Source of the DNA: a virus
Reading direction: 5' to 3' (one strand)
Virus record (IMG/VR): IMGVR_UViG_3300027822_000016
Coordinates: 1-55,299 of that record
DNA length: 55,299 bases
In this document: in pieces, positions 17,819-55,299 of the stretch
Layout: every line of letters begins with the position of its first letter
Numbering within the stretch: the first letter of the stretch is position 1
Made by a program: the position numbers and the translations under genes
Notes under the pieces: generated by a model
The model's input: only the letters and a program-made list of their open reading frames with translations
The model's database searches: none
What the model was told of the DNA's origin: nothing

Positions 17819-17835
17819 ACGATTTTGAACAGACG

Positions 17836-17867
17836 GGGCCGGACAGAAGGAAAAAACTGTCCGGCCC
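17836..17867 (+). terminator. hairpin terminator after primase-helicase
   Basis: An 11-bp stem GGGCCGGACAG/CTGTCCGGCCC with a 10-base loop starts 17 bases after the stop and is followed by TGTATTTTG. Confidence 0.75.
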
Positions 17868-17961
17868 TGTATTTTGGGCCAATCTCCCGCTTACGATAAA
17901 GACCCGCGATCAGCATACTCTATGCTCCTCCTGGAAAAGACCGCGATGCCGCAGGAGGAAC

Positions 17962-18765
17962 ATGGAGCCACCAGGAAATCCGAGTCCCGCAGTGATCACC
18001 GATGCGATGTGGAACTTTTGGCTAGGGCTGAAAAGTCTTGAGCCGAACAGTCTTCTGTCGGGTATTTATGCCGCGAAGCCTGGTTATCACAATACCAGGA
18101 GGGGGAATCGTCCGGGTGATTACAGTGTCCGGGATGCTGTTGACACGGAAGGTCCTGCAGACAAATCGGCAGCGATTGACTGGACTTTTCCGGATGCCCA
18201 GCGTGGGGATTATCGCACGATACGGATATATGGTGTGCGGGTGGAGAAGGCTTTTGAGACGGATGATCCTCGGATGTGGGCGGTGCGTGAGGCACTGGGG
18301 CAGAGTGATTCTGATGAGGTCGCGGAGGGGTACGATTTTCGCACCAGGAGGACGAGGACGCCGTCAAAGTCTCATGTGTGGCATTGGCATTTTTCGTTCA
18401 ACAGACGTGACGTGGAAGACCCCAAAGGGTACAAAGACTGTCTTTCTGTCCTGTCCGGGGAGTCTTTGGAGGAGTGGAAAAAGAAGAATTCTCCTGAAAC
18501 ACCCCTAGATGCCGTTTTAACGCTCGACACTCTACTAGGCGACAACTATGCCACTGGATACGAGTTACGTACTGTGGGGCACGTTTTGGCGGACCTTTCC
18601 AACCTGCGAGACGGCCTACTCCGAAAACCTCTGGAAAAAATGGACCACAACGGCGAACCCTTTTGGCCTGAAGAGTCCGTTATAGGACTACTTGTACGAT
18701 TCCTCCAACGGGAAATGCAGCCAGACTGCCAACCAAAAAGAAAAGGGAAGCCAGATGTGGAATAA
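17962..18765 (+). CDS. endolysin, M15-like zinc peptidase
   Basis: The start at 17962 is set by AGGAGG at 17953-17958; the frame is open further upstream but without a binding site. The 267-residue protein contains YHNTRRGNRPGDYSVRDA, SAAIDWTFPDAQ and SHVWHWHFSF around residues 55-155. The His/Asp arrangement is that of a family of peptidases (D-Ala-D-Ala carboxypeptidase-like) widespread as lysis enzymes in actinobacterial phages. The C-terminal hundred residues may bind the wall. No signal peptide is seen; release would depend on the holin that overlaps its end. Confidence 0.7.
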   Translation: MEPPGNPSPAVITDAMWNFWLGLKSLEPNSLLSGIYAAKPGYHNTRRGNRPGDYSVRDAVDTEGPADKSAAIDWTFPDAQRGDYRTIRIYGVRVEKAFETDDPRMWAVREALGQSDSDEVAEGYDFRTRRTRTPSKSHVWHWHFSFNRRDVEDPKGYKDCLSVLSGESLEEWKKKNSPETPLDAVLTLDTLLGDNYATGYELRTVGHVLADLSNLRDGLLRKPLEKMDHNGEPFWPEESVIGLLVRFLQREMQPDCQPKRKGKPDVE

Positions 18766-18976
18766 AGCTTTTTTTATTGACCTCGCCGAACGAGTCGTTG
18801 CAACTGCAGCGCAAGCAGCTGTCGCGATCATCGGCACCTACACGTTACTCAGCGATATCGACTGGGCGATCGTCCTCGGCACTACAGGGATCGCCGCGCT
18901 CACTGCCCTGCTGAAGGGATTCGTCGGTCTGCAGACAGGTGATCGCCGAAGTGCAGGAATTTTCGTCCGTAGATAG
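18755..18976 (+). CDS. holin
   Basis: The ATG at 18755 (MWNKAFFIDLAERVV) overlaps the end of the lysin gene by 11 nt and follows GGGAAG. The 73-residue protein has two predicted membrane segments (about 12-30 and 36-52) and a short polar tail LQTGDRRSAG. Size, position after the lysin and the ERVVATAAQAAVAIIG helix match small actinophage holins. It would permeabilise the membrane and time lysis. Confidence 0.85.
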   Translation: MWNKAFFIDLAERVVATAAQAAVAIIGTYTLLSDIDWAIVLGTTGIAALTALLKGFVGLQTGDRRSAGIFVRR

Positions 18977-20042: not shown

Positions 20043-20072
20043 ATTATAGACTGTTATCTGCGTTCAAGTCAA
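20043..20072 (-). promoter_or_regulatory. sigma70-type promoter for 19287-19997
   Basis: On the minus strand TTGACT and TATAAT are separated by 18 bases. The elements lie in the last codons of the nuclease gene. Confidence 0.7.
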
Positions 20073-20871
20073 TTATTTGCTTGTAAATATTCACTGCTTT
20101 CACCCCGTATCCGTAGGGCACTTTCAGCGCTTGACACGTATCTCCGCCACGAGGCAGGTGGAAAATAATACCGTACCCATCCTCCCCACAAATGATGCCC
20201 TCAGGCATCGGCTCGTACCACTCTGTTGCCGGATTGTACGTGTAATCCGCACTCGCATAGAGGTAGAGCTGGGGGGAAAAACCCTTCACCGCATACGGTG
20301 CGACACTGCCGGTTTTTATATCCGCGATGACGTGTGTGCCGTCTGCCAGTCGTAAACACATGTCATAACGTCCTGCGACATTGTATTTGGTGTTGACGAT
20401 CACTCGTTCGGTGAGTTCCACAGGGTTTTTTGATCCTGTGAGGAGGACAATCTCCTGGCGGAGTCCTTTGAGTTGTGATTGCATTCCGGGAGTGAGGGAG
20501 GCAAATTTTGCTCCGGAAAGTCTTCCTGTGATGAATTCTTCGACGATTGCGTGTACTTCTGTGCCGTAACTTGCGGCGTTATTTCCTCCACCGGTAAGGA
20601 ATGCTTTTGAGAATATGTCGTTCAGTCGGCTGTTTATTTCTTTTTTTGGGAGGTCGTGAGAGCGTACTTCGGTGATTTTGCGTGCGAAATATTCGGGGTC
20701 CAGGCTGATCCCGAGGAGGGCGATACGTTGTATCCATTCGTTGAGGGCGGGTTTGTCGAGCATGCCGCAAAAACTTGAGACTCGAAGGAGTTCGAGTTTT
20801 TGTTCAACTCCTTCGATGGGGAGAGTGACGATGTATTTGTTTTGTTTGTTGAGGTACGGTGGCCTTTTCAT
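20044..20871 (-). CDS. Cas4/RecB-type PD-(D/E)XK exonuclease
   Basis: The 275-residue protein carries the nuclease core: ASYGTEVHAIVEEF near residue 108 with the conserved His, AGRYDMCLRL near 172 and VIADIKTG near 184, followed by a Gln in SPQLYLYA. The same motif order occurs in Cas4/RecB-like nucleases encoded in actinophage replication blocks. It probably processes DNA ends in recombination or replication. No cysteine cluster typical of Cas4 iron-sulfur centres was seen. Downstream is an unknown protein likely to work with it. Confidence 0.8.
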   Translation of the reverse strand: MKRPPYLNKQNKYIVTLPIEGVEQKLELLRVSSFCGMLDKPALNEWIQRIALLGISLDPEYFARKITEVRSHDLPKKEINSRLNDIFSKAFLTGGGNNAASYGTEVHAIVEEFITGRLSGAKFASLTPGMQSQLKGLRQEIVLLTGSKNPVELTERVIVNTKYNVAGRYDMCLRLADGTHVIADIKTGSVAPYAVKGFSPQLYLYASADYTYNPATEWYEPMPEGIICGEDGYGIIFHLPRGGDTCQALKVPYGYGVKAVNIYKQIIDLNADNSL

Positions 20872-22125: not shown

Positions 22126-22524
22126 TTATTTTTCCTCTTTCCCTGTTTTTTTGTTTGGCCGGAAATCTTGCAACAGGATGACGTAGCCTGTTGCTGGTGG
22201 CAGTGGGTGTGACCCAAAGTACATGAGCAGTTCGCTGAGATTGAGATTGAGACTCCTGGCGAGCATCTGCATGTACCACGATTTTGGGGCGCAGCGCCCG
22301 TGCACCCATGAACTCATGGCTGCTCTACTGGCCCCGGATAGATCTGCGACGTTAATACCCATGAGTCCGTAGTATTCCGTGAGTTTCGCATAGTCGATGC
22401 GGGTATTGTGTTTTTCTCCGCTGTGGGGCGGTGGGGGCAGGGTGGGTACTTTCGGCAAGAGTTTGCGGTCTTGGCCGAGAAGATTTTCTATTGCGATTTC
22501 GGGTTCTTCTTTTTGGCTGTCCAT
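22126..22524 (-). CDS. XRE-like helix-turn-helix regulator
   Basis: The 132-residue protein has a Cro/C1-like DNA-binding region at about 45-105: YYGLMGINVADLSGASRAAM then SSWVHGRCAPKSWYMQMLAR and LNLNLSELLMYFG. The N-terminus is polar with a proline run. It is the first gene behind a consensus promoter and could repress early phage promoters, which are shared by many nearby genes. Repressor function is inferred. Confidence 0.7.
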   Translation of the reverse strand: MDSQKEEPEIAIENLLGQDRKLLPKVPTLPPPPHSGEKHNTRIDYAKLTEYYGLMGINVADLSGASRAAMSSWVHGRCAPKSWYMQMLARSLNLNLSELLMYFGSHPLPPATGYVILLQDFRPNKKTGKEEK

Positions 22525-27576: not shown

Positions 27577-28140
27577 CTATGTCAAAATCATTGAAAGTAG
27601 TCCGAGTATTGACTTTGTTATGCCAATCGCCTCAGACACTTCTGCATTCAGAGTATTGGAGTATCCAACGAGAGCATCTGTGCTTTTGATCAATTTTTCT
27701 GCGATGAACTCTGACATTGGAGCTTCTTTGGAAAATGCCCCCTGTTCTTTCATAAGTTCGCGCATTTTTTGGCTGAGTTCTTCCGCTTTTCCCTGCATCA
27801 GAGGTGCAGTATTGCGAGCTTCATCCCCCAAAGAGAGGACATTATTTCTTATTTCGTCCTCTTCTGCCAAGGCCATCTCCCACAGTATCTTTCCGATTCT
27901 CTCTGTTACTCCGCCGATGTTTCGCAGTGTTTGCGACAGATATCCGGCCTCGTCGGAGAGCCACATTGTGTCGTCCATCACTCGCCCATAGGACTTCACC
28001 ATCGAATCTTGCAGTTCCATCTCCCCGGAAAGTGCTTCTTTTGTGGCGGAGAGATTCACTTTGGTAGCCAGTAGCTCGTTCCTCGTAACAAGCAGCTTAT
28101 CTATGATGTCTATAAGGTTTCTTACTTCTAGGTCGATCAT
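27577..28140 (-). CDS. helical protein family, copy 1
   Basis: First of four related proteins encoded in tandem (27577-30323). The 187-residue product begins MIDLEVRNLIDIIDKLL; the family shares a start with [D/R/S]EV(R/K)xL, a WLSxExGxL motif (residues 60-70 here: WLSDEAGYL), an R-I helix and a later PMSxxxxxK element near 150. All are helical and lack membrane segments. Function is unknown; independent promoters and divergence suggest diversification by duplication. Confidence 0.65.
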   Translation of the reverse strand: MIDLEVRNLIDIIDKLLVTRNELLATKVNLSATKEALSGEMELQDSMVKSYGRVMDDTMWLSDEAGYLSQTLRNIGGVTERIGKILWEMALAEEDEIRNNVLSLGDEARNTAPLMQGKAEELSQKMRELMKEQGAFSKEAPMSEFIAEKLIKSTDALVGYSNTLNAEVSEAIGITKSILGLLSMILT

Positions 28141-28174
28141 CCGTCCTTCTCCCTCTCTTTGCTTCTATTTGTAA

Positions 28175-28203
28175 ATTTTACTACGTCAAACCTTATATGT
28201 CAA
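28175..28203 (-). promoter_or_regulatory. consensus promoter, copy 7
   Basis: TTGACA, 17 bases, TAAAAT for family copy 1. Confidence 0.85.
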
Positions 28204-28233
28204 CAAATGGAGATAGTGGCACCAATAAAAAAA

Positions 28234-28253
28234 GGAGACCCACCTGGGGGCCT
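28234..28253 (-). terminator. terminator after 28294-28872
   Basis: GGAGACCC-type stem with one imperfection, followed by TTTTTTT on the minus strand. Confidence 0.65.
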
Positions 28254-28293
28254 CCACACATGGAACGAGCTGTCGTAGCTCAGGACTCTGATT

Positions 28294-28872
28294 CTAGCAA
28301 AAATCACTCTTCTGTCCGGTGGAAAGCACCTTGAGAATTGCGTTCACCACGCTGTTCACCTCAGTCAATCCTTCGATCAGCAAATGAGTTCCGTTGATGA
28401 GAGATTCTGTGTCGTTGGTCAGTTTTTCTGCGACAGTCCAGGACATGGGGGCAGTCTCGGAAAAGCTTTTCTTCTCGTCTTCAATCCTCTGCATTTCTCG
28501 GCAGAGTTCAGCCGATTTCTTCTCCAGCGCAGGAGCTTTGCTTCTGGCTTCTATCCCCAGACTGCAGATACCCTGCTGCAGCCGCTTTTTATCCGCCCCG
28601 CCTATCTCCCAGAGATTCTTGTCGATCTTTTTTGTTACGGCGTGGAGGCATCTTGATGTCAGAGCGAGGCCACCGAATTCTTCGGAGAGCCACTTGATCT
28701 CTACAAGTACTTCTGCGTAGGACTTTACGATCGTCTTTTGGTTTTTCGGGTCCCAGGAGAGAGCATCTTTCATTTCGGGGAGGATGTTTCGGGCGGTGTC
28801 GCCCGCTTCGTAACTCTTGTAGAGGAGGTTTGCTACGGTGTCTACGAGGTTTTTTACTTCTGAGTTGATCAT
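28294..28872 (-). CDS. helical protein family, copy 2
   Basis: The 192-residue product begins MINSEVKNLVDTVANLLYKS and aligns over its length with copy 1, including IKWLSEEFGGLALTSRCLH, GIEARSKAPALEKKSAELC and APMSWTVAEKL. The downstream untranslated sequence is also duplicated from copy 1, so the duplication involved the whole unit. Function unknown. Confidence 0.65.
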   Translation of the reverse strand: MINSEVKNLVDTVANLLYKSYEAGDTARNILPEMKDALSWDPKNQKTIVKSYAEVLVEIKWLSEEFGGLALTSRCLHAVTKKIDKNLWEIGGADKKRLQQGICSLGIEARSKAPALEKKSAELCREMQRIEDEKKSFSETAPMSWTVAEKLTNDTESLINGTHLLIEGLTEVNSVVNAILKVLSTGQKSDFC

Positions 28873-28908
28873 CTTGCTACTTCTTTCTCTCCATTTGCTT
28901 ACATCCGT

Positions 28909-28937
28909 ATTTTATCTGGTCAAACACTGTTTGTCAA
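28909..28937 (-). promoter_or_regulatory. consensus promoter, copy 8
   Basis: TTGACA, 17 bases, TAAAAT for family copy 2. Confidence 0.85.
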
Positions 28938-28960
28938 CAAAAGACGACGGAAATAAGGAA

Positions 28961-28993
28961 GGAAGAGTCCAGTCTTAATGACTGGACTCTTCC
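28961..28993 (-). terminator. terminator after 29027-29623
   Basis: A 13-bp perfect stem (GGAAGAGTCCAGT and complement) with a seven-base loop and TTCCTTATTTCC following. Confidence 0.75.
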
Positions 28994-29026
28994 TGTGGAG
29001 AAATCAGGTTGCTTAGGAAAGTGTAC

Positions 29027-29623
29027 CTATGCTGTCTTTTGCAATTCCAGTGGAGGAAGAGGTTCGAGTATTTGCTTCATAAGTGAATGTACATCATCTA
29101 CTACATCTATTGCGATTTTAACCCCGTCGATAAGATCCCTCGTACTCCCCTCAAACCACTTCACAAACGTGAGACTCATAGGTTCTTTGCCAGAATGAAT
29201 AAAACTTTCGTCGAGGTACTTTTCTGTCTTTCGGTCGAATTCATAACGTGTGTATTCAAAGTGTTTTTCGTGTGTGTCAGAGGCTTTGTAGTTGCACTCT
29301 CTACCAGGAATGAGGATTGCTTGCAATGCCTCTTCGCTCATCAGCGACTCGTCTAGAATTTTTTTGTCAATTGCGTATGTCAAGGTGTAGATGTCTCTGT
29401 ATATCTGCGCCAAGTAGCCAAATTCTCCGGAGAGCCATTCTGTGTTCTGAACCAGTTCACCGTACATATCTGTGATAGATTTACCGATCGACTGGTAGAG
29501 CGAAAGAGCTATCACAGTGTTCGACAAGTTCTCTTCGCCTTCAGAAAGTCTCTTTTTTGTGGAACTGAGGCTTGCTGCGATGTCCCGGAGCTGTTTCACT
29601 TCTCTGTCGATTATGGTGGTCAT
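29027..29623 (-). CDS. helical protein family, copy 3
   Basis: ATG 29623 (MTTIIDREVKQLRDIAAS) is preferred to the in-frame ATG 29644 because AGAAGG stands nine bases ahead of it and because it aligns with the other copies. The 198-residue protein has TEWLSGEFGYLAQIYRDI and EPMSLTFVKWFEGSTRDLI. Its leader and first 30 codons are nearly identical to copy 4, showing recent duplication or gene conversion. Confidence 0.65.
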   Translation of the reverse strand: MTTIIDREVKQLRDIAASLSSTKKRLSEGEENLSNTVIALSLYQSIGKSITDMYGELVQNTEWLSGEFGYLAQIYRDIYTLTYAIDKKILDESLMSEEALQAILIPGRECNYKASDTHEKHFEYTRYEFDRKTEKYLDESFIHSGKEPMSLTFVKWFEGSTRDLIDGVKIAIDVVDDVHSLMKQILEPLPPLELQKTA

Positions 29624-29658
29624 CTGATGTGTCCTTCTCTCCATTTGCTTACGTCCGT

Positions 29659-29687
29659 ATTTTATCGGGTCACACTCTGTTTGTCAA
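29659..29687 (-). promoter_or_regulatory. consensus promoter, copy 9
   Basis: TTGACA, 17 bases, TAAAAT for family copy 3. Confidence 0.85.
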
Positions 29688-29716
29688 CATAGTGGAACAA
29701 GAAGCCAAATAAAAAA

Positions 29717-29738
29717 GGAGACCCACCTGGGGGTCCCC
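29717..29738 (-). terminator. terminator after 29760-30323
   Basis: GGAGACCC/GGGTCCCC stem with one mismatch and TTTTTT after it. Confidence 0.65.
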
Positions 29739-29759
29739 ATGATACGCCCTTTTTGAATG

Positions 29760-30323
29760 TCAGCGTGGAAGCGGTTCGAGTACTCGCTTCATAAACAACT
29801 CTGCTTGATCTACTACTTTTATAGCAGTTCCAACACCTTCGATAAGATCCATCGTACGCTTTTTAAACCACTTCACAAACGGGGGACTCATAGGCTCTTC
29901 TTCAGAATGGTCGCCACCTTCGCTAAAATACCTTGCCGCTTTTCGACTGAATTCCTCGTAGTATATTTCGTGAATGTCGGAAGCTGTGAAGCTGCCTTCT
30001 TTGCCAAGATGAAGAAGGGTTTTTAATTTCTCTTCGCTCATCACAGGCTTGTCCCAGATTTTTTCGTCAATTTCCTTTGTCAGCGAGTAGACGTCTCTGT
30101 ATATTTGCGCCAAACACCCGAATTCCCCGGAGAGCCATTTTGTGTTCTCGATCAGTTCCGCGTAGGCGCCTGTGATGGATTTACCGTATGACTGATAGCG
30201 AGGAAGATTTCTCTCTATGTATGACAAAGTTTCTTTTTTTCCGGAAAGTCTCTTTTTTGTGGCACTGAGGCTTGCTGCGATGTCCCGGAGCTGTTTCACT
30301 TCTCTGTCGATTATGGTGGTCAT
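29760..30323 (-). CDS. helical protein family, copy 4
   Basis: Starts at ATG 30323 by the same argument as copy 3. The 187-residue product differs from copy 3 mostly in its middle (EEKLKTLLHLGKEGSFTASD) while keeping TKWLSGEFGCLAQIYRDV and EPMSPPFVKWFKKRTMDLI. Function unknown. Confidence 0.65.
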   Translation of the reverse strand: MTTIIDREVKQLRDIAASLSATKKRLSGKKETLSYIERNLPRYQSYGKSITGAYAELIENTKWLSGEFGCLAQIYRDVYSLTKEIDEKIWDKPVMSEEKLKTLLHLGKEGSFTASDIHEIYYEEFSRKAARYFSEGGDHSEEEPMSPPFVKWFKKRTMDLIEGVGTAIKVVDQAELFMKRVLEPLPR

Positions 30324-30358
30324 CTGATGTGTCCTTCTCTCCATTTGCCTATAAGACT

Positions 30359-43111: not shown

Positions 43112-43531
43112 TTAGCTCCCATCATTAATATTTTTCATACCTATTAAATCATTAATTATATGCCTTGCACAAGGCCAATTTTCCCGGCGCATGCTGGGAA
43201 TTCTCTCGCCAGTGAGCAGGTAGAATACATCTGGAGTGCGCCGACCTTTCACCACATCGCCTTGTTGCGCCACTATGGGGTAGACCGGTAGCCCGTACTC
43301 CTTCCACATGACATTTGTGACAATGTTATAAAAACTATTCCATTCCCCAGCGGATATCGATTTCGCCCCAGTCTTGCACTGCACAAGCAAAATTTGTCGA
43401 TGCCCCATTGCAATAACATCTGCGCCCATAGCACTTTTGCTCCCGGCAAAACGTGCCGCCACATACCCCACGTCCGACAAGGACGCAACGACGACACGCT
43501 CAAAAGCCGCACCTCTCTGATAATTCGTCAT
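43112..43531 (-). CDS. Holliday-junction-resolvase-type nuclease
   Basis: ATG 43531 overlaps the upstream stop (ATGA) and has GGAGG seven bases ahead. The 139-residue protein has the restriction-like core E11, D38 (SAMGADVIAMG) and Q51-C-K53 (ILLVQCKTG), as in archaeal Hjc-type and related phage enzymes. It could resolve branched DNA before packaging or transfer. It is co-operonic with the spread-like membrane protein. Confidence 0.7.
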   Translation of the reverse strand: MTNYQRGAAFERVVVASLSDVGYVAARFAGSKSAMGADVIAMGHRQILLVQCKTGAKSISAGEWNSFYNIVTNVMWKEYGLPVYPIVAQQGDVVKGRRTPDVFYLLTGERIPSMRRENWPCARHIINDLIGMKNINDGS

Positions 43532-44583
43532 CACACAACCTCCTTCGCCTTCATCTCGGCCTTGACTTGTTTTCTCCGATCCTTGAACCCTTCATGTCTG
43601 CAGATGGATGATGGGGATACGCCAATCTCCTCTGCAATGATGTTGTCCATTTTCATGCGTCCTTCATCGTCGAACCAGTTCCCGGATTGCACACCAGCGT
43701 CATCCAGCCAATCCTCAATTGCAGTACGTGCTGTGCCTCGTTTGATCGGGATCACACCCGCCGCAATTTCACGGGCTGATTGCAATGCAATTTCATTTTC
43801 ACGATCCAACCCCGCTGCAATTTCACGAGCTGATTGCAATGCAATTTCACTCCTTGGATTCTGTGCAATTTCATGCGCTGCCTCCTCTGCAATTTCATAC
43901 GCTGATTTCACTGCAATTTCATGCGATGATTTCACTGCAATTTCACTCCTCGGATTCTGTGCAATTTCAGGCTGCACCACAATTTCAGACTTCATCGCCT
44001 CAACATGACTGCGATTCACCACAGCAAAAAGCCTCGTCAACCGCAGCACGCCCTCGATTAAGAGGACAAATACTGTCGATGGCAGAGCTTCAAAAATCGC
44101 ATACCCCGCGTGCCCCACTACAAATAGGGCATACGACGCATTGAGTACGAGCGTGGAGATACCAACACCAAGCATCGCCCAGCGAAAAAGTTGCATCGCA
44201 CTGGCATGCTCCCTCTGCAGCTCTTTCTCGTCATCACCTGGCGAGAGCAGCACAAAAATCAAATTCACACTAACCAGAAAGAGCAAAAACGTATCTAGCA
44301 TTGGTGCTACCAACACTGACAAATTGTCAGGGACACCCAGATAGGCTCCCAATCCCTGGATATTTCGGAACGAAAAAAGATACGCGCACCAAATCAATGC
44401 CCCCGTTGTTGCAAACGATGTGAGAAACATCAATCCCAACACATCGTTACGGACATTGAAAATTCTGTTTTTCAATGTCCGTAACGAATGCACAAAACGT
44501 TGCTTCCGAGCGGCACGAGCGCTCTCACGCACCATTTTCCTCTCCCGTTTCTCCCTCATTTTCACCTGATATTTCGTCTCCAT
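43531..44583 (-). CDS. SpdB/DUF2637-like membrane protein with EIA repeats and HTH
   Basis: A 350-residue protein in three parts. Residues 1-45 are basic. Residues 50-190 hold about four membrane segments (including FLTSFATTGALIWCAYLFSF and APMLDTFLLFLVSVNLIFVL), in the manner of DUF2637/SpdB spread proteins of actinobacterial plasmids. Residues 200-275 carry about nine EIA-type repeats (HEIAVKS, YEIAEEA, REIAAG). The end (DNIIAEEIGVSPSSICRHEG) is a helix-turn-helix. The repeats are written with the DNA word GCAATTTCA (minus strand TGAAATTGC) that also builds the nearby array. Confidence 0.65.
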   Translation of the reverse strand: METKYQVKMREKRERKMVRESARAARKQRFVHSLRTLKNRIFNVRNDVLGLMFLTSFATTGALIWCAYLFSFRNIQGLGAYLGVPDNLSVLVAPMLDTFLLFLVSVNLIFVLLSPGDDEKELQREHASAMQLFRWAMLGVGISTLVLNASYALFVVGHAGYAIFEALPSTVFVLLIEGVLRLTRLFAVVNRSHVEAMKSEIVVQPEIAQNPRSEIAVKSSHEIAVKSAYEIAEEAAHEIAQNPRSEIALQSAREIAAGLDRENEIALQSAREIAAGVIPIKRGTARTAIEDWLDDAGVQSGNWFDDEGRMKMDNIIAEEIGVSPSSICRHEGFKDRRKQVKAEMKAKEVV

Positions 44584-44605
44584 TTTCTTCTCCTCTCCCC
44601 CTAAG

Positions 44606-44620
44606 AACCCCGAAGGGGTT
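44606..44620 (-). repeat. tetraloop hairpin in leader
   Basis: AACCCC-TTCG-GGGTT type hairpin lies between promoter and ATG of 43531-44583; possibly a leader stabiliser or translation control element. Confidence 0.5.
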
Positions 44621-44628
44621 GCCGTCGA

Positions 44629-44658
44629 TTTTTATGCGGTCTGACCTGCACTTTTCAA
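44629..44658 (-). promoter_or_regulatory. promoter for 43531-44583
   Basis: TTGAAA, 18 bases, TAAAAA in the gap between the two transfer-like genes. Confidence 0.55.
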
Positions 44659-44678
44659 TTTTTGATTCCGGACAGTTC

Positions 44679-45716
44679 CTAGTCATTTCCTGGTCGGTTT
44701 CCCACTCGATCTCCCGTTCGGTTTCCCACCCGGTTTCCCACTCGATTTCCCGTTGGGTTTCCACCGTTCTCAATGCTCCTGCGCTTTGGCGGAGCCAAGG
44801 AGAAGAGGGTCATCGGTCGGTCCTTGGCAGCATGGCTTCCCAGTTTTCCCCATATTGCGGAGAGGGCGCCATGCTCGTAGTCGGGTGTGAAGAATGCCTT
44901 TTTTGTAGCGACGCCGACGTTAAAACCTGGGGGCATTTCGGTGTTTCTGTGGGTTTCCCAGATTGCTTTTGCGCATTCTTTGCCGCCGAATCCACGCCGG
45001 TCGTCTTCTGTAATGATGAGTAGGCGGGGGAATTCTCCTCCGGGGAAGCGTTCTCGCCATGCGTCTGGGGTGTTGTACAAATGCTTATATTTTTGCACTT
45101 TTTCTGCTAGTTTGCTTACTCCTTGTGTGCCTCTGTCCAGCTCAATGATGAGTGGCACTACTGTTATCTGCCCGTTGCGCACCGCGATGTAGTGCAGGAT
45201 CATGTCGGAGATCAGCAGTTGCTCATCACCTCGTTTTGTTTTGCGGTACTTGAACGCAATTTCGTGCTCCCATGCGTATGGGTCGCACTGGTCGCCCATT
45301 GTTAGTGCGATTTCGCAGAATCGCAGTCCGACCCGGTTGGCGAGGAGCGGATGGTAGGGCCATATTCTCCCTGTTGGGTTGTGCAGCCATCCACGGTCAA
45401 GCTTTGGATTCCCTTGGCATACTGCGTCGATTCCTTTTTCCGTCGCATGCCAGCAGACCCGATTTTTCTTGCCGACCTCGCCAGTGCGTTTGTTGATGTA
45501 CTCACCATTTTTCAGTGTTGTCAAGTGGTCGTTAAATTTACTCAGGGGTGATAAGCCCAGGTAGAAATGCATTTTTTGTAGTGTGCTGGAGGTGATGTAT
45601 CTGTGTTGGGTAAGTAACGTCACCGTGGTGGCTTGCCGCTCGGAAAACACAGATGCGCCACTTTCCCCCCCTTTCTCTGGTGGTGTCCCTCGCGGTTTTG
45701 TCTCTGTCGCTCGCAT
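44679..45716 (-). CDS. replication-relaxation family protein
   Basis: The first 110 residues form a winged-helix-like domain: ERQATTVTLLTQHRYITSST, then KFNDHLTTLKNGEYINKRTG and VCWHATEKGIDAV. A nuclease-like or binding fold follows with EHEIAFKYRKTKRGDEQLLI and VPLIIELDRGTQG. This is the layout of the replication-relaxation family (PF13814) found on actinobacterial and firmicute plasmids and integrative elements beside DNA-translocating ATPases. The C-terminus ends in NRVGNRVGNRTGDRVGNRPG, a short repeat array. GGGG precedes the ATG by eight bases. It probably handles DNA at the adjacent repeat array, by inference. Confidence 0.7.
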   Translation of the reverse strand: MRATETKPRGTPPEKGGESGASVFSERQATTVTLLTQHRYITSSTLQKMHFYLGLSPLSKFNDHLTTLKNGEYINKRTGEVGKKNRVCWHATEKGIDAVCQGNPKLDRGWLHNPTGRIWPYHPLLANRVGLRFCEIALTMGDQCDPYAWEHEIAFKYRKTKRGDEQLLISDMILHYIAVRNGQITVVPLIIELDRGTQGVSKLAEKVQKYKHLYNTPDAWRERFPGGEFPRLLIITEDDRRGFGGKECAKAIWETHRNTEMPPGFNVGVATKKAFFTPDYEHGALSAIWGKLGSHAAKDRPMTLFSLAPPKRRSIENGGNPTGNRVGNRVGNRTGDRVGNRPGND

Positions 45717-45807
45717 ACTTTGGCCCCATTTCGTGAAATTTCACAGGAAATTGCACATCCGTCATTGTCGTTACTCCGTCAACACATTTATTACGTAGTA
45801 TAGTTGT

Positions 45808-46396
45808 GCAATTTCATCCACGCCATCTAGAATTTTTGACCGTGAAATTTCACGAGCTAATTTCATGAGCAATTTCACGAGCCAATTTCATGAGCAATTT
45901 CACGAGCCAATTTCATGAGCAATTTCACGAGCTGATTTCACAAGGCAATTTCACGAGCTGATTTCATGAGTAATTTCACGAGCTGATTTCACAAGACGAT
46001 TTCATGAGCAATTTCACAAGGCAATTTCACAGGCAATTTCACAAGGCAATTTCACAGGCAATTTCACAGGCAATTTCACGAGCAATTTCACTAGCCAATT
46101 TCACAAGGCAATTTCACGAGCTGATTTCATGAGCAATTTCACGAGCTGATTTCACAAGGCAATTTCATGAGCAATTTCACGAGCAATTTCATGAGCAATT
46201 TCACGAGCAATTTCATGAGCAATTTCACAAGACGATTTCATGAGCAATTTCACGAGCAATTTCACAGGCAATTTCACTAGCCAATTTCATGAGCAATTTC
46301 ACTAGCCAATTTCATGAGCAATTTCACTAGCCAATTTCATGAGCAATTTCATGAGCAATTTCATGAGCAATTTCACTAGGCAATTTCATGAGCAAA
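45808..46396. repeat. about 45-unit short tandem repeat array, core ATTTCA(C/T)
   Basis: The array consists of units of 12 or 13 bases, each ATTTCA followed by C or T and a variable filler (ACGAGC, ATGAGC, ACAGGC, ACAAGG, ACTAGC), mostly preceded by GCA. I count about 45 units. The unequal lengths mean it is not a coding repeat, and open frames over it are meaningless. It lies upstream of the replication-relaxation gene and directly downstream of the ATPase gene, whose last codons continue the same word. It resembles a dense protein-binding locus such as a plasmid transfer or partition site. Confidence 0.9.
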
Positions 46397-46398
46397 TT

Positions 46399-49254
46399 TC
46401 ACAACATATAAAAGGGGAGGCCGTCCCCGCCCGCAATTGTCTCTTCCTCGCTACCATCTGCAACTGCACAATCCATCGTGGAATCTTCCACTACAACAGC
46501 ACTGTCATCTGCAATTTCATCTGCGATTTCATCTGCGATTTCATCTGCAATTTCATCCAAATCAAAATCGATGATCCGTTGCACAAGAGTTTTTTGGTGT
46601 CGTGCAACTGTCTCAAATGACACGCCTTCGTCATCCCGTAATACCGGATAAGGCAATTCTCCCGGTTCTCCGAGTATTGCTTTTGCGTCCAGTCCATGCA
46701 GTAGGTGGTGCTGTAGTGGATTCGCCTGGTGGGGCGAACGTGCAACTGCACACATCTGATACTGCAACCCAGTGAGTGGTATGTGGTCGGGGACGAGCAA
46801 TTTTCTCCGAAATTTATCTGCGTCATCCTGCGTGTTGAATGCGACCTGCAGCAAACTTGCATTCGCCAGTACAACGTCTTCTATTCCATAGGGGAGTTGC
46901 CCAAAATTTTGTGCAGCGAAAATGAGGGGCATATTGCTCTTGCGCCCTTGGGTCAGAAGGAGATTTATGGAGTCTCGGAATGCCCCGATAAATGAAGGTG
47001 CCTCATCCATAATAATGAGATGTGGTGGGTGTTCTCTGGCGTCCGCCATGTCAGCCCGGCCGTACACTGATTGCCGCAGGTACGCTGCAATAAATGCGCC
47101 GAAAATGTTTCCAACATGCTGGTCTTTTCCCGTGCGAAGTTGAATGAGCGTGATTTTCCCGCGTCCGACATCCATTTGCGGGGACCATCGAGTTTTTGAC
47201 GATCCCAACATGGTGTACATCGTGTCGTCTACTTTTGCGCTGTCGATGATCTCAAGCGGACCTTCGACAGAACTCCGCTGCACCCTTTCCCAATCTCCTG
47301 CGATGTTTTCCGGCAGAAGAGAGACGATTTTCTCCTGGAATGCAATTGATTTTGGGTCTTCTCGGACCATCGTGGCGAGTTGGAATACTGTGGTTTGGAT
47401 GTCTTCCGGCAAGCGGCTGTTTGCCACTACCAGTGAGGTGATGAGTACTTTGAGTACTCGCCTGATTTTAGGGGCATTGTCCGTCCTCCACTCACCGGCA
47501 GAACAAAGCGCACTGAACGCACCACTCGCGATGTTATCCACCTGTCCCCTTTTTGCACCCTTCGGCACGAATAGAGGATTCATCGGCTTCTGTAACGACC
47601 CCTCCTCTTTATTGTCCATGTCAATAACATGGAGTCGTTCGCGCATGTGCGCGCGTGCATCTGGGCCATCACAATCCTGGAGGTAGTAGTTCAGAAGTTT
47701 CGCTGTTTGTGCATCAGGCACGATAATTGTTGCGGATGCGTCCTCCCGAGAAGAGAGATACGTCACAACAGCGGACACAAGCGCACTTGTTTTCCCCCCA
47801 CCAGAAGGGGCCACAAGCATCCAAGCAACAAAATCCTGCAAATCCGCAGCTTTTCTCTGCCCATCAATCTCCCCAATAGGGAGAGCGTACCGGGGATTTT
47901 CACTGTCCCAATCCGGTAGGGAATTTTCGTCTCTCCCCTGGCCTGCAATTTCAGTGAGCGTGACCTTATTTATAGGGGGCAAAAAGAGCGGGGTGAGCGG
48001 TCCGATTGCCATTGTCCACGCGCGTTGTTTGTCGATTTTCGCTGTCTTCATACTGGTGTCGAATCGTCGAGCAGCGGTGGCCCCGGATGAGTGGCTACGT
48101 TCTTGGAGGATGTTTTGTCCGGAATCCAACGCCAGTCGAAGAGCGGCGCTGATGTTTGTGGCGATTTGTTGTGCGCGTGTTTCGGTTGCCGCCACAGAAG
48201 CGATACTTATGTCGCATACTCCTATGGGGTCGGTATTTGTGAGCTGTGCGCCTGCATCGCGGGCGGCTTTGCGAAATTTTTCTGCGTCTCCCTGGTCGAC
48301 TGGCCCAACATCCACTACGACCCACACAGCGTCGGTGTCGGAAAAGTTTTTCGCCGCTTTCTCAATCTGGACGTGTGGGTCTTGTATGGTGATGGATTCC
48401 AGTGCGCCAACGAAACTGTTGCTACGGCGTTGTGGATGGAAACTCGCCCGTGCGACGCCTACGTTTGCGTTTTTGTGTGGCCAGTCTTCGAGGACTCTCC
48501 CTGATTCTCGTCGTACCTGTATCCCTTTTGGCATTTGTGCGGCAAAAACTTCTTCCATGTCGCTTGTCACCTGGACATAAATAGAAAGTGCGTCTCTCCT
48601 TACCTGCGTGATCCCACGTACGACAGTATTCGTTTCCCCTGCTCGTAGTACCGCCAATCCCAAAACTTTGCTCGCCTCTTCCAGTGGAAGGACGTCAAAG
48701 TCGCTTTCCGGGAGGAGTTGTAAAGTGACGATTTCTTCTTTCGGATTTTTCCCTCGCCAAAACATGGCCACTGCGTCCCTCAGGTCAAATTCTTTCCCGC
48801 TCCGTACACGAGTCAATAACACCGCTATGGAGTACACAACGAGCAAAAAAATGGTCAGGATGATACAGACTGCGCCCCAGAAGAGTATGAGAAAAAGAGT
48901 TCGGTGCAGTGTCCATGCGATCATAAAAAAGACCAGTGCGTAAAACCCGCACACCCACAACATGGCCAAAAGAGAATTCAAACCGGAAGCCAAAAGCGTC
49001 TGCAAAAGAAACAGTCCGTAGACGAACGATGCGATCGTCGACGCCCACGTCACCGACCAGCGCACACTCGTGCCGGATGAGAGCATTGCCAGGAAAATGG
49101 GCACCCAAATAGAAATGGGCACATAGAGCCATACCTTTATAGGCACACTAGGTACAACCACTCGCTCATTACCATCTCCATCATTTGACAAAGATCGCAG
49201 CAAGCGAATGTTTGCAACGTTTTCGAGTAGTTCTTTAAGATCGAGGAGAGCCAT
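46399..49254 (-). CDS. membrane-anchored FtsK/HerA/VirD4-type DNA-translocating ATPase
   Basis: A 951-residue protein. Residues 30-150 include four or five membrane segments (WVPIFLAMLSSGTSVRW, ALVFFMIAWTLHRTLFLILF). The Walker A VAPSGGGKTSAL is near 485, Walker B HLIIMDEAPSF near 748, and GRKSNMPLIFAAQNFGQLPY follows as the sensor-like segment. Middle parts with IASVAATETRAQQIATN resemble conjugative ATPases. The C-terminus holds four DEIA repeats encoded by the array word. Hexameric enzymes of this superfamily pump DNA across membranes. Whether it belongs to the FtsK/TraB or to the VirD4 branch cannot be settled by eye. Confidence 0.8.
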   Translation of the reverse strand: MALLDLKELLENVANIRLLRSLSNDGDGNERVVVPSVPIKVWLYVPISIWVPIFLAMLSSGTSVRWSVTWASTIASFVYGLFLLQTLLASGLNSLLAMLWVCGFYALVFFMIAWTLHRTLFLILFWGAVCIILTIFLLVVYSIAVLLTRVRSGKEFDLRDAVAMFWRGKNPKEEIVTLQLLPESDFDVLPLEEASKVLGLAVLRAGETNTVVRGITQVRRDALSIYVQVTSDMEEVFAAQMPKGIQVRRESGRVLEDWPHKNANVGVARASFHPQRRSNSFVGALESITIQDPHVQIEKAAKNFSDTDAVWVVVDVGPVDQGDAEKFRKAARDAGAQLTNTDPIGVCDISIASVAATETRAQQIATNISAALRLALDSGQNILQERSHSSGATAARRFDTSMKTAKIDKQRAWTMAIGPLTPLFLPPINKVTLTEIAGQGRDENSLPDWDSENPRYALPIGEIDGQRKAADLQDFVAWMLVAPSGGGKTSALVSAVVTYLSSREDASATIIVPDAQTAKLLNYYLQDCDGPDARAHMRERLHVIDMDNKEEGSLQKPMNPLFVPKGAKRGQVDNIASGAFSALCSAGEWRTDNAPKIRRVLKVLITSLVVANSRLPEDIQTTVFQLATMVREDPKSIAFQEKIVSLLPENIAGDWERVQRSSVEGPLEIIDSAKVDDTMYTMLGSSKTRWSPQMDVGRGKITLIQLRTGKDQHVGNIFGAFIAAYLRQSVYGRADMADAREHPPHLIIMDEAPSFIGAFRDSINLLLTQGRKSNMPLIFAAQNFGQLPYGIEDVVLANASLLQVAFNTQDDADKFRRKLLVPDHIPLTGLQYQMCAVARSPHQANPLQHHLLHGLDAKAILGEPGELPYPVLRDDEGVSFETVARHQKTLVQRIIDFDLDEIADEIADEIADEIADDSAVVVEDSTMDCAVADGSEEETIAGGDGLPFYML

Positions 49255-49257
49255 GTT

Positions 49258-49722
49258 TCAACTCCCGTGACGTTCGTCCGCGGCCTTACCCAGCTGAGCC
49301 AGTGCAGTGAGAGCGATTTGGTCCTGGGGATTTGCAGCGAGCATGCTATTGATCCGAGTTTCCAGCTCTTCTGGGGTCGCGCCATGCATGAGCAGCTGCG
49401 TTGCCATATTGATGACAGCCGGATCGTATTTGCTGAGAGGTTTCGGTGGAGTGCCAAAATGCAGCTCCACCGAACCTTTTGCGCCTTTTGCATTCACGAA
49501 CAGATATTTCGGCATGCGTGTTGTTTGACTGTTGTCAATGGCGACATGCCGACTGGTGTCCGTGTGCGTGCTGGCGTTGACACTGACCTCGCCGATATCA
49601 GTGTCAACGACATTCGTATTTTCCATGTGTGTGCTTTCTTCTGGCGGTTTTTTTCTGTGAAAAAATTCCAGGTAAATGAGGAACGCCAAGGTGGAGAGCC
49701 AGAGAATTTCAAGCCCTGTCAT
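49258..49722 (-). CDS. membrane-anchored protein of transfer-like module
   Basis: The 154-residue protein has an N-terminal membrane helix (LEILWLSTLAFLIYLEFF), a polar linker rich in Thr, Asp and Asn, a strand region KYLFVNAKGAKGSVELHFG and a helical C-terminus. It ends three bases before the ATPase ATG, so it may act with the ATPase at the membrane. No family recognised. Confidence 0.6.
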   Translation of the reverse strand: MTGLEILWLSTLAFLIYLEFFHRKKPPEESTHMENTNVVDTDIGEVSVNASTHTDTSRHVAIDNSQTTRMPKYLFVNAKGAKGSVELHFGTPPKPLSKYDPAVINMATQLLMHGATPEELETRINSMLAANPQDQIALTALAQLGKAADERHGS

Positions 49723-50053
49723 GCTCCACCCGGCCGGAAAGCGCCTTCGCCTTCGACTTTTCGATTTTTACCTCTGCCCGTGTTTTCGACGGACTCACGC
49801 ATTGTGCGTGGAATGCGTCATTTGTGAGCACGTCGATGACGTGACGAACTCGAGAAATTGCTTGCACAGCAACGTACATGAGAGTGACGCAAAGGAAAAA
49901 GAGTGCGTCAATCCCCTGGTAGCCGCTTCGGTAGACGCCAATGACCCCGGAGAGAAACGCTCCTGCTTCTAGCATGGCGAGAAAAGTGTTTCTTCGCAGC
50001 CATCCCGCTGGGAGTTGGTCAAGTTTCTCTGAAATGTCCTTGTACCACTTCAT
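49709..50053 (-). CDS. 114-residue membrane protein
   Basis: ATG 50053 (MKWYKDISEKLDQLPAG) follows AGGAAGGGAAC; a longer frame from 50131 lies in the leader. Two membrane segments lie at about 24-43 and 50-68. The C-terminus is basic (KVEKSKAK-like). It is the first gene of the transfer-like operon and overlaps the next by 14 nt. Function unknown. Confidence 0.6.
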   Translation of the reverse strand: MKWYKDISEKLDQLPAGWLRRNTFLAMLEAGAFLSGVIGVYRSGYQGIDALFFLCVTLMYVAVQAISRVRHVIDVLTNDAFHAQCVSPSKTRAEVKIEKSKAKALSGRVEHDRA

Positions 50054-52875: not shown

Positions 52876-55299
52876 TCACACTGGGCTGAGGTCCCACTCC
52901 GTGACCCACGATGTCACTCCATGTGACCAACGATGACGTATAGCGACGATGAGAAAATTTCTCTCAATACCCATACCGGTATTTCCCGAGGCGATCAGAT
53001 GGATCTTGTCCCCGAACCTCCGTATGTACGCCTGGTAGCGGTAATCGCTTCTCTTCGTCGCGGTGAATGAGATCGTGAGAAGCGGCAACGGATCTGCATA
53101 TTTTGCGAGAACCTGAGAGTTAAAACTTTCTGCATCGGCGACAGAGCTAAAAACAGAGTCCGTGTGTTGCCAGGTTTTTATCGCCCCAAGTGCTGCCTGC
53201 GACGCCGTATTATCACTGGCGACAACTCTCCCACCAAGACTCGGAGGAGGCTGCCCCTCGTTCCCTCTTACCGCGAGAACGAGCGTCTCCAAGTGGTCAA
53301 AATTTACCGGTGGGTGGGTGAACCATCCAGGGGCGAAAACGTCTTGCGCCCGGTTCGCTCCCGCGATTTGATACCCGACATCAAATGCGTTTGTACCGCT
53401 TCCTTGCACGATACCGTCATCCAGCGCGTGCATCCGAAACGGGGTGTTGGAGAATGTAAGAGTGGGTACACTTCCTCCTCCCGTTCCGACATTTCCAACC
53501 ATTGCACCGATGTGCGCGAGAAAAATTGTTGCTGTCGCTCCCCAGGGTGAGCCTAATACTGGCGGGAAGTTTCGTCCTGCTCTGGCGAGGGACCCGGTTT
53601 CCGGTTCGCCGTACCCTGAGACCGCGAGTGCTGTGCCTGATTCGATGCTGCCGTACCAGTCACGTAGGTAGATTGCGTGTATACTCCATGCTCCGCCTGA
53701 AATTTCATCGTCGTTGTAAAATGTTGTGAGTGGTCGGCTGGCGACATCATAATCTGTCAATGTCTTTGCGTATACACGTATTTTTCCCAGTTCAGCACCA
53801 GCGCCACGCAAATTATCCCACCCAGGAGGGGTCAACCACTGTTCAGCCTTGTCGTACACCGTTGAGACGATAAACAGGACAGCCAGATCGCCCACTTCGA
53901 TAAGTGTCGAAGGAACCTGCATCTCTATTGCATTTGCTACTCCAGCACTCGTCGACCGACTCGACTCCCCCTTCGTCACGATATTCGGCAGAAATGGTGG
54001 AATAGGAGTGACCACACGATTCACCCGCTCCCCGCGCCAACTATGCAGCTGCAAAGATTCGTAAATAAATTGTCCCCCTGGGGCATCAGATAATTCTATT
54101 GTTGGCTGATTCGCACTAAGCATGTGATTGTACAAAAAGCAAATCCTGCCCTCGTTCCCTTCACATACATACCCCAAGTCTGTGTTTTCATATACTCGTA
54201 GGAGGCTTAGAAGATTCCGCTGAGCGTACGCATGCCCCCCACAATTCAACACCAGGTTGGAATTGAACGGATTTGTGTTGCCCGCAGGGTGCAACAATCC
54301 CCCCTGGCGTAACGCGTGTCCCACCGCAACCGCAACGGACGTCCCCACACTCGCTTCCTCATCGACTCCGACAGTCGCGATACTGTCTACCTCTGTATTT
54401 GCGGCCAGAGAGAGGGGACCTTCCGCCTCCAAAACCGCAAACTTCCCCTCCGTCGGACTCACGGACGGGATAACACTGGTCACACGCCCAGTCCAAATCA
54501 CATCAGCGTTTGTGAATCCGCCCCACGTATTCCAGACGAGAAATTCGTCCCATTCAGGAGCTTCTTTTGTCCGCCACTGGCTATAAAGACCGTATTTCTG
54601 TCCCCCCGTGCCGAATGCCACCGGATTGTCCTTCAGATCCCCATTGATAAAAATGTTCACGTTTGAGCCAGAAACGAACAATTGTAATGTCAGTTCTGGT
54701 GTGTCCTCTATCGTGAATTGGCTTGTTTTTGAAAGAGATCCTGCAGTTTTCGTCCAGTGTTGTATGTTCAAAAAATTTGATATGTCGACTTCTGCGAGGA
54801 CAAGTCCGTAGTTTGAGGCGTCTGTCAGTCTGTAGACGATCCCCAGGTCTGACCTTATGTCCTTCTTGATGTATGTAGCTTGCATGAAGCATGCATCAAC
54901 ACCGAGGTCGACGGCGTCAATCGAACGATAATCTGTCGACGCCACATGCGGACGCAACGGACGAGCAACACCTGACCCACTCCGGTAATGCCCCAAATTC
55001 TCTATCGCCTCCCACGTATTCCCCACCTCATCAAGCGACCCATTCAACAAACCCGTACCACTAAAAAAGTCCTTCGCCAACAACACCGGATCGGTGTCTT
55101 CCGTCCCCCCAATCTGCACACGCAACAATCGACCCTCATCCAGAGAGAACGGCGGAGTATTCAAAGGAGAGGCAGCATTGAAAAACGAAAACCGGTCGTC
55201 CGAATTGTCAAGAGTCGCACGAAACCTCCCCGGACTGACCTTCCCGTTCAATTGACTCGCGCTATCCCGCCCCGCACTCGTCTCCGCACCCAAAACATA
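52876..55299 (-). CDS. large minor tail protein, C-terminal part (continues from window start)
   Basis: This is the body of the 1,077-residue protein whose start lies at 1066. The window edge falls inside it, so an apparent ATG at 55293 is internal. The sequence includes SPGRFRATLDNSDDRFSFFN, a laminin/concanavalin-like strand region (TQLTIEDTPELTLQLFVSG-type), a segment with DLAVLFIVSTVYDKAEQWLT resembling the N-terminal part of the same protein, and a C-terminal QVLAKYADPLPLLTISFTAT region common in actinophage tail proteins. It probably forms the tail tip. Confidence 0.8.
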   Translation of the reverse strand, partial: YVLGAETSAGRDSASQLNGKVSPGRFRATLDNSDDRFSFFNAASPLNTPPFSLDEGRLLRVQIGGTEDTDPVLLAKDFFSGTGLLNGSLDEVGNTWEAIENLGHYRSGSGVARPLRPHVASTDYRSIDAVDLGVDACFMQATYIKKDIRSDLGIVYRLTDASNYGLVLAEVDISNFLNIQHWTKTAGSLSKTSQFTIEDTPELTLQLFVSGSNVNIFINGDLKDNPVAFGTGGQKYGLYSQWRTKEAPEWDEFLVWNTWGGFTNADVIWTGRVTSVIPSVSPTEGKFAVLEAEGPLSLAANTEVDSIATVGVDEEASVGTSVAVAVGHALRQGGLLHPAGNTNPFNSNLVLNCGGHAYAQRNLLSLLRVYENTDLGYVCEGNEGRICFLYNHMLSANQPTIELSDAPGGQFIYESLQLHSWRGERVNRVVTPIPPFLPNIVTKGESSRSTSAGVANAIEMQVPSTLIEVGDLAVLFIVSTVYDKAEQWLTPPGWDNLRGAGAELGKIRVYAKTLTDYDVASRPLTTFYNDDEISGGAWSIHAIYLRDWYGSIESGTALAVSGYGEPETGSLARAGRNFPPVLGSPWGATATIFLAHIGAMVGNVGTGGGSVPTLTFSNTPFRMHALDDGIVQGSGTNAFDVGYQIAGANRAQDVFAPGWFTHPPVNFDHLETLVLAVRGNEGQPPPSLGGRVVASDNTASQAALGAIKTWQHTDSVFSSVADAESFNSQVLAKYADPLPLLTISFTATKRSDYRYQAYIRRFGDKIHLIASGNTGMGIERNFLIVAIRHRWSHGVTSWVTEWDLSPV
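55044..55299. repeat. right copy of terminal overlap
   Basis: Matches 1-256 with three substitutions (55171, 55198, 55252). It marks the point where the circular map closes. Confidence 0.85.

What the first reader, a model, noticed from the sequence alone, without database searches (positions are those of the whole stretch)
43112..50053. A plasmid-transfer-like module inside a tailed-phage genome
One continuous leftward block holds a membrane-anchored DNA-translocating ATPase, a replication-relaxation-type protein, a DUF2637/SpdB-like membrane protein with a helix-turn-helix, a Holliday-junction nuclease and two small membrane proteins, with a dense short-repeat array in the middle. In Streptomyces plasmids a single FtsK-like ATPase (TraB) moves double-stranded DNA between mycelial cells by binding short repeats in the clt locus, aided by Spd proteins. 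The same ingredients here suggest a phage-plasmid able to spread by conjugation as well as by virions, or a module for partition or DNA delivery reshaped from it. No integrase was found, which fits an extrachromosomal state. The component families are recognised by eye; the joint function is inference.
Basis: partly seen in the sequence, partly recalled or inferred. Interest (0 to 1): 0.92.

Follow-up and report, generated by a model that had tools for sequence, protein, structure and literature searches.

The report
Conjugation relaxase-and-pump cassette in actinophage
A complete tailed-phage genome, probably from an actinobacterium, carries a DNA-pump gene and a DNA-nicking gene of the kind that actinobacterial conjugative elements use, with about 60 copies of one short DNA word at and around the join between them, so this virus may also be able to hitch a ride through another element's conjugation channel.

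Summary
The window is a near-complete phage genome (ends overlap by 256 bp). The block contains a membrane ATPase, a Replic_Relax (PF13814) protein, a weakly DUF2637/SpdB-like protein and an Hjc/Mrr nuclease. The repeat array is real: TGAAATTGC occurs 41 times, 40 of them within 43.7-46.6 kb, all on one strand, against 0.9 expected. The ATPase is not of the FtsK/TraB type. It folds like VirB4/VirD4 ATPases of type IV secretion, and its relatives lie directly upstream of PF13814 in 47 of 50 actinobacterial loci, one of them an integrative element with VirB4, VirB6, transglycosylase and integrase. PF13814 corresponds to MOBC relaxases (winged helix plus PD-(D/E)XK nuclease); the characterised MOBC relaxase, TraX of pAD1, binds direct repeats in oriT. 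Here 12/13-bp repeats plus a long inverted repeat lie between pump and relaxase genes. Best reading: a mobilization cassette (coupling protein, relaxase, oriT-like site) without a mating pore, so transfer would need a helper; this function is inferred. Main rival: the same parts recruited for phage replication or segregation, as FtsK+Replic_Relax pairs in Bacillus phages may be. TraB/clt transfer is not supported. New variant of a known kind.

The parts
49709..50053 (-). small membrane protein (sm1, 114 aa), first gene of the cassette
   Evidence: 84% identical in L002, dN/dS 0.12; no family
49258..49722 (-). small protein with N-terminal hydrophobic helix (sm2, 154 aa)
   Evidence: 60% identical in L002, dN/dS 0.21; no family
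46399..49254 (-). T4CP-like (VirB4/VirD4 superfamily) membrane ATPase, 951 aa
   Evidence: 80% in L002, dN/dS 0.13; homologues directly upstream of PF13814 in 47/50 actinobacterial loci; model pLDDT 69.7 with N-terminal membrane helices and a helical domain inserted in the ATPase; Foldseek best hits are type IV secretion ATPases
46505..46557 (-). four repeat units in the 3' end of the ATPase gene (DEIADEIADEIADEIAD)
   Evidence: absent from the 80%-identical relative
45846..46402 (-). array of 45 direct 12/13-bp units TGAAAT(TG/CA)..; proposed relaxase-binding part of an oriT-like site
   Evidence: role by analogy with pAD1 TraX (PMC12857230)
45731..45855 (.). long interrupted inverted repeat beside the array (arms 45731-45744/45842-45855, 14 bp, and 45747-45757/45805-45815, 11 bp, both 100%); proposed neighbourhood of nic
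   Evidence: single-strand DNA fold z -3.7
44679..45716 (-). MOBC-type relaxase candidate (Replic_Relax PF13814): winged helix + PD-(D/E)XK
   Evidence: Pfam 3.6e-11; E152, D171, E192, D194 invariant and K206 nearly invariant in 33 homologues, all kept; model pLDDT 79.5; Foldseek winged-helix regulators and restriction enzyme PaqCI
43531..44583 (-). membrane protein, weakly DUF2637/SpdB-like, carrying about 12 copies of the repeat in its coding sequence
   Evidence: DUF2637 below cut-off; repeat copies in two reading frames, all ten EI(A/V) use GAA ATT
43112..43534 (-). Hjc/Mrr-type PD-(D/E)XK nuclease (probable Holliday-junction resolvase)
   Evidence: PF01870 and PF04471 above cut-off

Best explanation
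The block is a mobilization cassette related to those of type IV secretion-dependent conjugative elements of Actinobacteria: a membrane-anchored coupling-protein-like ATPase (T4CP role), a MOBC-type relaxase (Replic_Relax), and between their genes a cis site of 45 direct 12/13-bp repeats plus a long inverted repeat that resembles a MOBC origin of transfer. Proposed working: the relaxase's winged helix loads on the repeats; its PD-(D/E)XK domain nicks one strand near the inverted repeat; the ATPase receives the nucleoprotein and feeds it to a mating channel. The phage encodes no VirB4 or VirB6, so transfer would need the channel of a co-resident conjugative plasmid or integrative element, while virions remain the main route. 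Shown by computation: gene families, cassette order, conserved catalytic residues, repeats, purifying selection on the ATPase, absence of VirB4/VirB6 families. Inferred: repeat binding, nicking, use of a helper channel.
For: PF13814 above cut-off, a family used as the MobC relaxase class (PMC5357655). Catalytic E/D/ExD/K residues kept; winged helix and PD-(D/E)XK matches. ATPase homologue directly upstream of PF13814 in 47/50 actinobacterial loci and six Streptomyces plasmids. One chromosomal element carries VirB4 (PF12846 5.6e-56), VirB6/TrbL (1.5e-5, just under cut-off), transglycosylase, this ATPase, PF13814 and integrase. Fold of the ATPase matches T4SS ATPases. MOBC relaxase TraX has a winged helix and binds five direct repeats in oriT, 70-120 bp from nic (PMC12857230). 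Array and inverted repeat lie between T4CP and relaxase genes. Repeats constrained as DNA: inside the SpdB-like gene the word occurs in two reading frames, and all ten EI(A/V) use GAA ATT although GAG is commoner elsewhere. ATPase dN/dS 0.13 against L002. No VirB4/VirB6 in the record.
Against: No helper or host is known. FtsK + Replic_Relax pairs also occur in Bacillus phages without a conjugation channel recognised, so the pair can serve some phage function. The ATPase is only about 20% identical to its element relatives and below the PF02534 cut-off. No array was found in the element and plasmid relatives, whose ATPase and relaxase genes abut, so the array is phage-specific. The inverted repeat is built partly from the same repeat word. 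The relaxase gene could not be confirmed in L002, whose contig stops just after the ATPase gene.
Confidence: 0.5

Rival explanations
1. Domesticated replication module: the Replic_Relax protein binds the repeats as iterons and starts or aids phage or plasmid replication by nicking, and the membrane ATPase anchors or moves the DNA in the same cell. No conjugation.
For: Bacillus phages carry FtsK + Replic_Relax pairs, read by their authors as plasmid-type replication and segregation genes (PMC9658697, PMC9703825). PHROG 9381 is annotated 'replication initiation by nicking' (2.5e-8). Repeats resemble iterons. No mating pore.
Against: The phage already has a Prim-Pol/D5 primase-helicase, PolA and a helicase; the ATPase is a T4SS-type membrane protein, not the 430-aa FtsK form of those phages; coarse GC skew shows no switch at the array.
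Confidence: 0.32
2. TraB/clt-type double-strand DNA transfer, as first proposed: the ATPase alone pumps phage DNA between mycelial cells by recognising the repeats, helped by an SpdB-like protein.
For: Membrane ATPase, DUF2637-like protein (sub-threshold) and directional repeats in one block; actinobacterial host likely.
Against: No FtsK hit; T4SS-type fold; relatives in a T4SS-type element with VirB4 and VirB6; last residues of the ATPase of low confidence in the model, no winged helix seen there; GACCCGGA at chance level; a relaxase would not be needed.
Confidence: 0.06
3. Partition/maintenance module: the array is a centromere bound by a winged-helix or HTH protein for stable inheritance of an extrachromosomal prophage.
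For: Some plasmid centromeres are arrays of short direct repeats (own knowledge); HTH-like proteins beside the array; no integrase detected.
Against: No ParA, ParM or TubZ recognised in the scanned ORFs; the relatives' gene pairing points to transfer, not partition.
Confidence: 0.08
4. Repeat array without function, spread by slippage or gene conversion next to acquired genes of little use.
For: Four repeat units in the ATPase gene are absent from the 80%-identical relative; tandem arrays can expand neutrally.
Against: dN/dS 0.13 and 0.12 for ATPase and sm1; catalytic residues kept; repeat word kept in two reading frames and at three separate places.
Confidence: 0.04

Closest known systems
T4SS-type integrative element and linear plasmids of Actinobacteria (Paraconexibacter antarcticus locus L135; Streptomyces linear plasmids L083-L088)
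   Same: ATPase directly followed by PF13814 relaxase on the same strand, small membrane protein gene or domain upstream; catalytic residues of the relaxase shared
   Different: They carry transfer-apparatus genes nearby (VirB4, VirB6, integrase shown for L135) and no comparable repeat array was found near the pair; the phage has no VirB4/VirB6 and an array between the two genes; ATPase identity only about 20%
MOBC relaxase TraX and its oriT on Enterococcus plasmid pAD1
   Same: Winged helix + PD-(D/E)XK relaxase; direct repeats as binding site in oriT (PMC12857230)
   Different: 5 repeats there, 45 in tandem plus copies inside neighbouring genes here; binding and nicking untested here
Bacillus phages with FtsK/SpoIIIE + Replic_Relax (Bolokhovo, Andromeda, Geobacillus PK3.5) and Kirov/Thrax Tyroviruses
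   Same: DNA-pump or T4SS-type gene next to a Replic_Relax gene in a tailed phage
   Different: About 430-aa FtsK-type ATPase in the first group; no repeat array found in Bolokhovo; Firmicute hosts
TraB/clt/Spd system of Streptomyces plasmids
   Same: Actinobacterial setting, membrane ATPase, directional short repeats, possible SpdB-like protein
   Different: Different ATPase family, relaxase present, no enrichment of the TraB word

Membership tests
MOBC relaxase (PF13814) | Match to Replic_Relax above the curated cut-off | tested here: met
   44.0 bits against 25.3, E 3.6e-11
MOBC relaxase (PF13814) | N-terminal winged helix and PD-(D/E)XK catalytic residues | tested here: met
   AlphaFold model; Foldseek winged-helix regulators and PaqCI, best E 3.7e-3; E152, D171, E192, D194, K206 kept
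MOBC relaxase (PF13814) | oriT with direct repeats near the relaxase gene | tested here: met
   45-unit array plus inverted repeat between T4CP and relaxase genes; presence only, not activity
MOBC relaxase (PF13814) | Site-specific binding and nicking | not testable with these tools
   needs biochemistry
VirD4-type coupling protein (T4CP) | N-terminal membrane anchor, Walker A/B, all-alpha domain inserted in the ATPase | tested here: met
   model of moderate confidence; motifs in alignment
VirD4-type coupling protein (T4CP) | Curated profile match (PF02534) | tested here: not met
   11.6 bits against 20.1; two of its element relatives get no Pfam match either. Hence called T4CP-like, not filed as a VirD4 member
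VirD4-type coupling protein (T4CP) | T4CP position in a T4SS element, distinct from VirB4 | tested here: met
   shown for the relative in L135, which has its own VirB4; fold of the window protein also matches VirB4
TraB/FtsK translocase | FtsK/SpoIIIE motor domain | tested here: not met
   no FtsK profile hit; none described as FtsK among the 50 PDB matches listed
TraB/FtsK translocase | clt recognition word GACCCGGA clustered near the gene (word from memory) | tested here: not met
   2 copies in the window, 1.7 expected, neither near the module
SpdB/DUF2637 | DUF2637 above cut-off | tested here: not met
   12.1 and 10.9 bits against 22.8; similarity remains a lead
Self-transmissible T4SS element | VirB4 and VirB6 genes | tested here: not met
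   no match at E<=1 to PF12846 or PF04610
Phage-plasmid | Plasmid replication/partition genes and no integrase | tested here: inconclusive
   no integrase, ParA/ParM/TubZ recognised in scanned ORFs; Replic_Relax could be a replication gene

The most novel reading that the evidence does not exclude
A virion-forming phage that is also mobilized by conjugation with its own coupling protein, MOBC relaxase and a giant repeat-type oriT whose copies extend into the coding sequences of the ATPase and membrane-protein genes: a virus with two transfer routes that borrows a resident element's channel.
Probability: 0.35. Interest if true: 0.88.

Novelty: new variant of a known kind. Interest (0 to 1): 0.62.

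Why it matters
If true, one genome would spread both as a virus and through a conjugation channel, linking two transfer routes usually studied apart, with a defined candidate oriT and relaxase to test. If instead the parts serve phage replication, it would show how conjugation enzymes are recruited by phages, and would offer a testable answer to why Replic_Relax proteins and DNA pumps recur together in phages of Firmicutes and, as here, of a probable actinobacterial host.

Tried and rejected
tblastn of the ATPase and the relaxase against 50,697 phage records: no match; an element relative's relaxase likewise. Scans of IMG/VR for relaxase relatives: none; for the SpdB-like protein: none; for the ATPase: only L002's contig. 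PF13814 and the ATPase profile in 45 records of TerL relatives: only L002's own record has the ATPase. The repeat word scanned through IMG/VR gave 20 places, each a single match, so no second array was seen. Profile test that the ATPase N-terminus is a fused copy of the small upstream plasmid protein: not significant; in five element loci the two domains share one ORF, so fusion in the phage is only suggested by order and predicted fold. PDB sequence search: nothing useful. NCBIfam gave no usable name. PADLOC hits of the ATPase (mad8, DndH) are superfamily level. Rfam: nothing. Bolokhovo: no array between FtsK and Replic_Relax. Viral structure library: near full-length matches in Bacillus phages G and JL, where phage G gp155 is annotated VirB-like, not followed further. 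Closer relatives of the ATPase in 396 genomes of the phylum: 18 with a match, none closer than the elements already found. TraB word: chance level. A few calls failed on coordinates, handles or format and were redone.

Full report
What the window is. The record is a 55.3-kb virus genome. Its first and last 256 bp match at 98.8%, and a 1077-aa tail protein that is whole in the related contig L002 spans the joint, so the genome is effectively complete. TerL is 50% identical to that of Thermobifida phage P1312 and next best to Streptomyces phages, so an actinobacterial host is likely. L002 (24.3-kb contig from IMG/VR) shares tail, PolA, sm1, sm2 and the ATPase in the same order and stops just past the ATPase gene; the module is therefore not an assembly chimera, though L002 cannot speak for the relaxase or the array.

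The genes. Pfam confirms Replic_Relax and Hjc/Mrr above cut-off; DUF2637 stays below. The ATPase has only a sub-threshold VirD4 hit. Its nature comes from three other lines. First, a scan of bacterial genomes with the relaxase found 50 actinobacterial loci; in 47 of them an ATPase homologue lies directly upstream, as it does in six Streptomyces linear plasmids. Second, the locus on the Paraconexibacter chromosome is an integrative element: VirB4, TrbL/VirB6, transglycosylase, this ATPase, PF13814, integrase. Third, the AlphaFold model shows N-terminal membrane helices and a RecA-like ATPase with an inserted helical domain, and Foldseek returns R388 VirB4, Cagbeta, TrwB and the Legionella coupling complex. 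The TM-scores are modest and the model is of moderate confidence, so VirB4 and VirD4 cannot be told apart by fold; the neighbourhood, where VirB4 is a separate gene, favours the coupling-protein role.

The relaxase. PF13814 is classed as MobC by Coluzzi and colleagues (PMC5357655). MOBC relaxases are related to PD-(D/E)XK restriction enzymes; TraX of pAD1 has an N-terminal winged helix and binds five direct repeats 70-120 bp from nic (PMC12857230). The window protein has the winged helix and the nuclease-like core in its model and keeps the conserved E152, D171, E192, D194 and K206.

The repeats. TGAAATTGC occurs 41 times against 0.87 expected, always on the minus strand. Between the ATPase and relaxase genes 45 units of 12 or 13 bp follow one another. 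Four more end the ATPase gene and about twelve lie in the SpdB-like gene; there the core word TGAAAT occurs in two reading frames, and ten of ten EI(A/V) stretches use GAA ATT although GAG prevails in the rest of the gene. This points to selection or copying at the DNA level rather than for the peptide. At the relaxase side the array ends in a long inverted repeat with a fold z-score of -3.7; part of its arms is the repeat word itself. The relatives in elements and plasmids showed no comparable array near the pair.

Is it in use? Against L002 the ATPase has dN/dS 0.13 and sm1 0.12: both are under purifying selection in the phage lineage. VirB4 and VirB6 families are absent, so a channel would have to come from elsewhere.

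Interpretation. The parts and their order equal the cytoplasmic half of a conjugation system, which is what many integrative mobilizable elements carry (PMC5357655). I take mobilization in trans as most likely (0.5), and recruitment for replication or segregation as the main rival (0.32), because FtsK + Replic_Relax pairs recur in Bacillus phages and their authors read them as plasmid replication and segregation genes. That plasmids derived from P1-like phage-plasmids gain relaxases or oriTs while all but two of the P1-like phage-plasmids lack them (PMC10879196) shows why a complete phage with a whole relaxase-pump cassette would be unusual.

Limits. All functional steps are inferred. ATPase identity to element relatives is about 20%. 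The collections searched hold few relatives of this phage, so absence elsewhere is weak evidence.

Noticed in passing
27577-30344 (-): Four tandem, similar-looking genes of about 190 codons; those at 29027 and 29760 start with nearly identical protein sequence. Function unknown.
   Followed up: no
20044-20871 (-): PD-(D/E)XK exonuclease (phrog_466, 2e-30).
   Followed up: partly
15170-18976 (+): The only clear rightward genes: Prim-Pol/D5 primase-helicase and an r1t-type holin, opposite to the rest.
   Followed up: partly
22126-22524 (-): Weak transcriptional regulator hit (phrog_2967, 0.0019), a possible repressor.
   Followed up: no
1-256 and 55044-55299: Inexact terminal overlap (98.8%, 3 mismatches) shows the record is near complete.
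   Followed up: yes
44694-44762 (-): The 3' end of the relaxase gene carries its own 12-bp repeat (GGAAACCGGGTG-like, GNRVGNRV), a different word from the main array.
   Followed up: partly
L186:1-3337 (Bacillus phage G gp155, gp156): Adjacent genes, gp155 annotated VirB-like; gp156 is a near full-length structural match to the window ATPase.
   Followed up: partly
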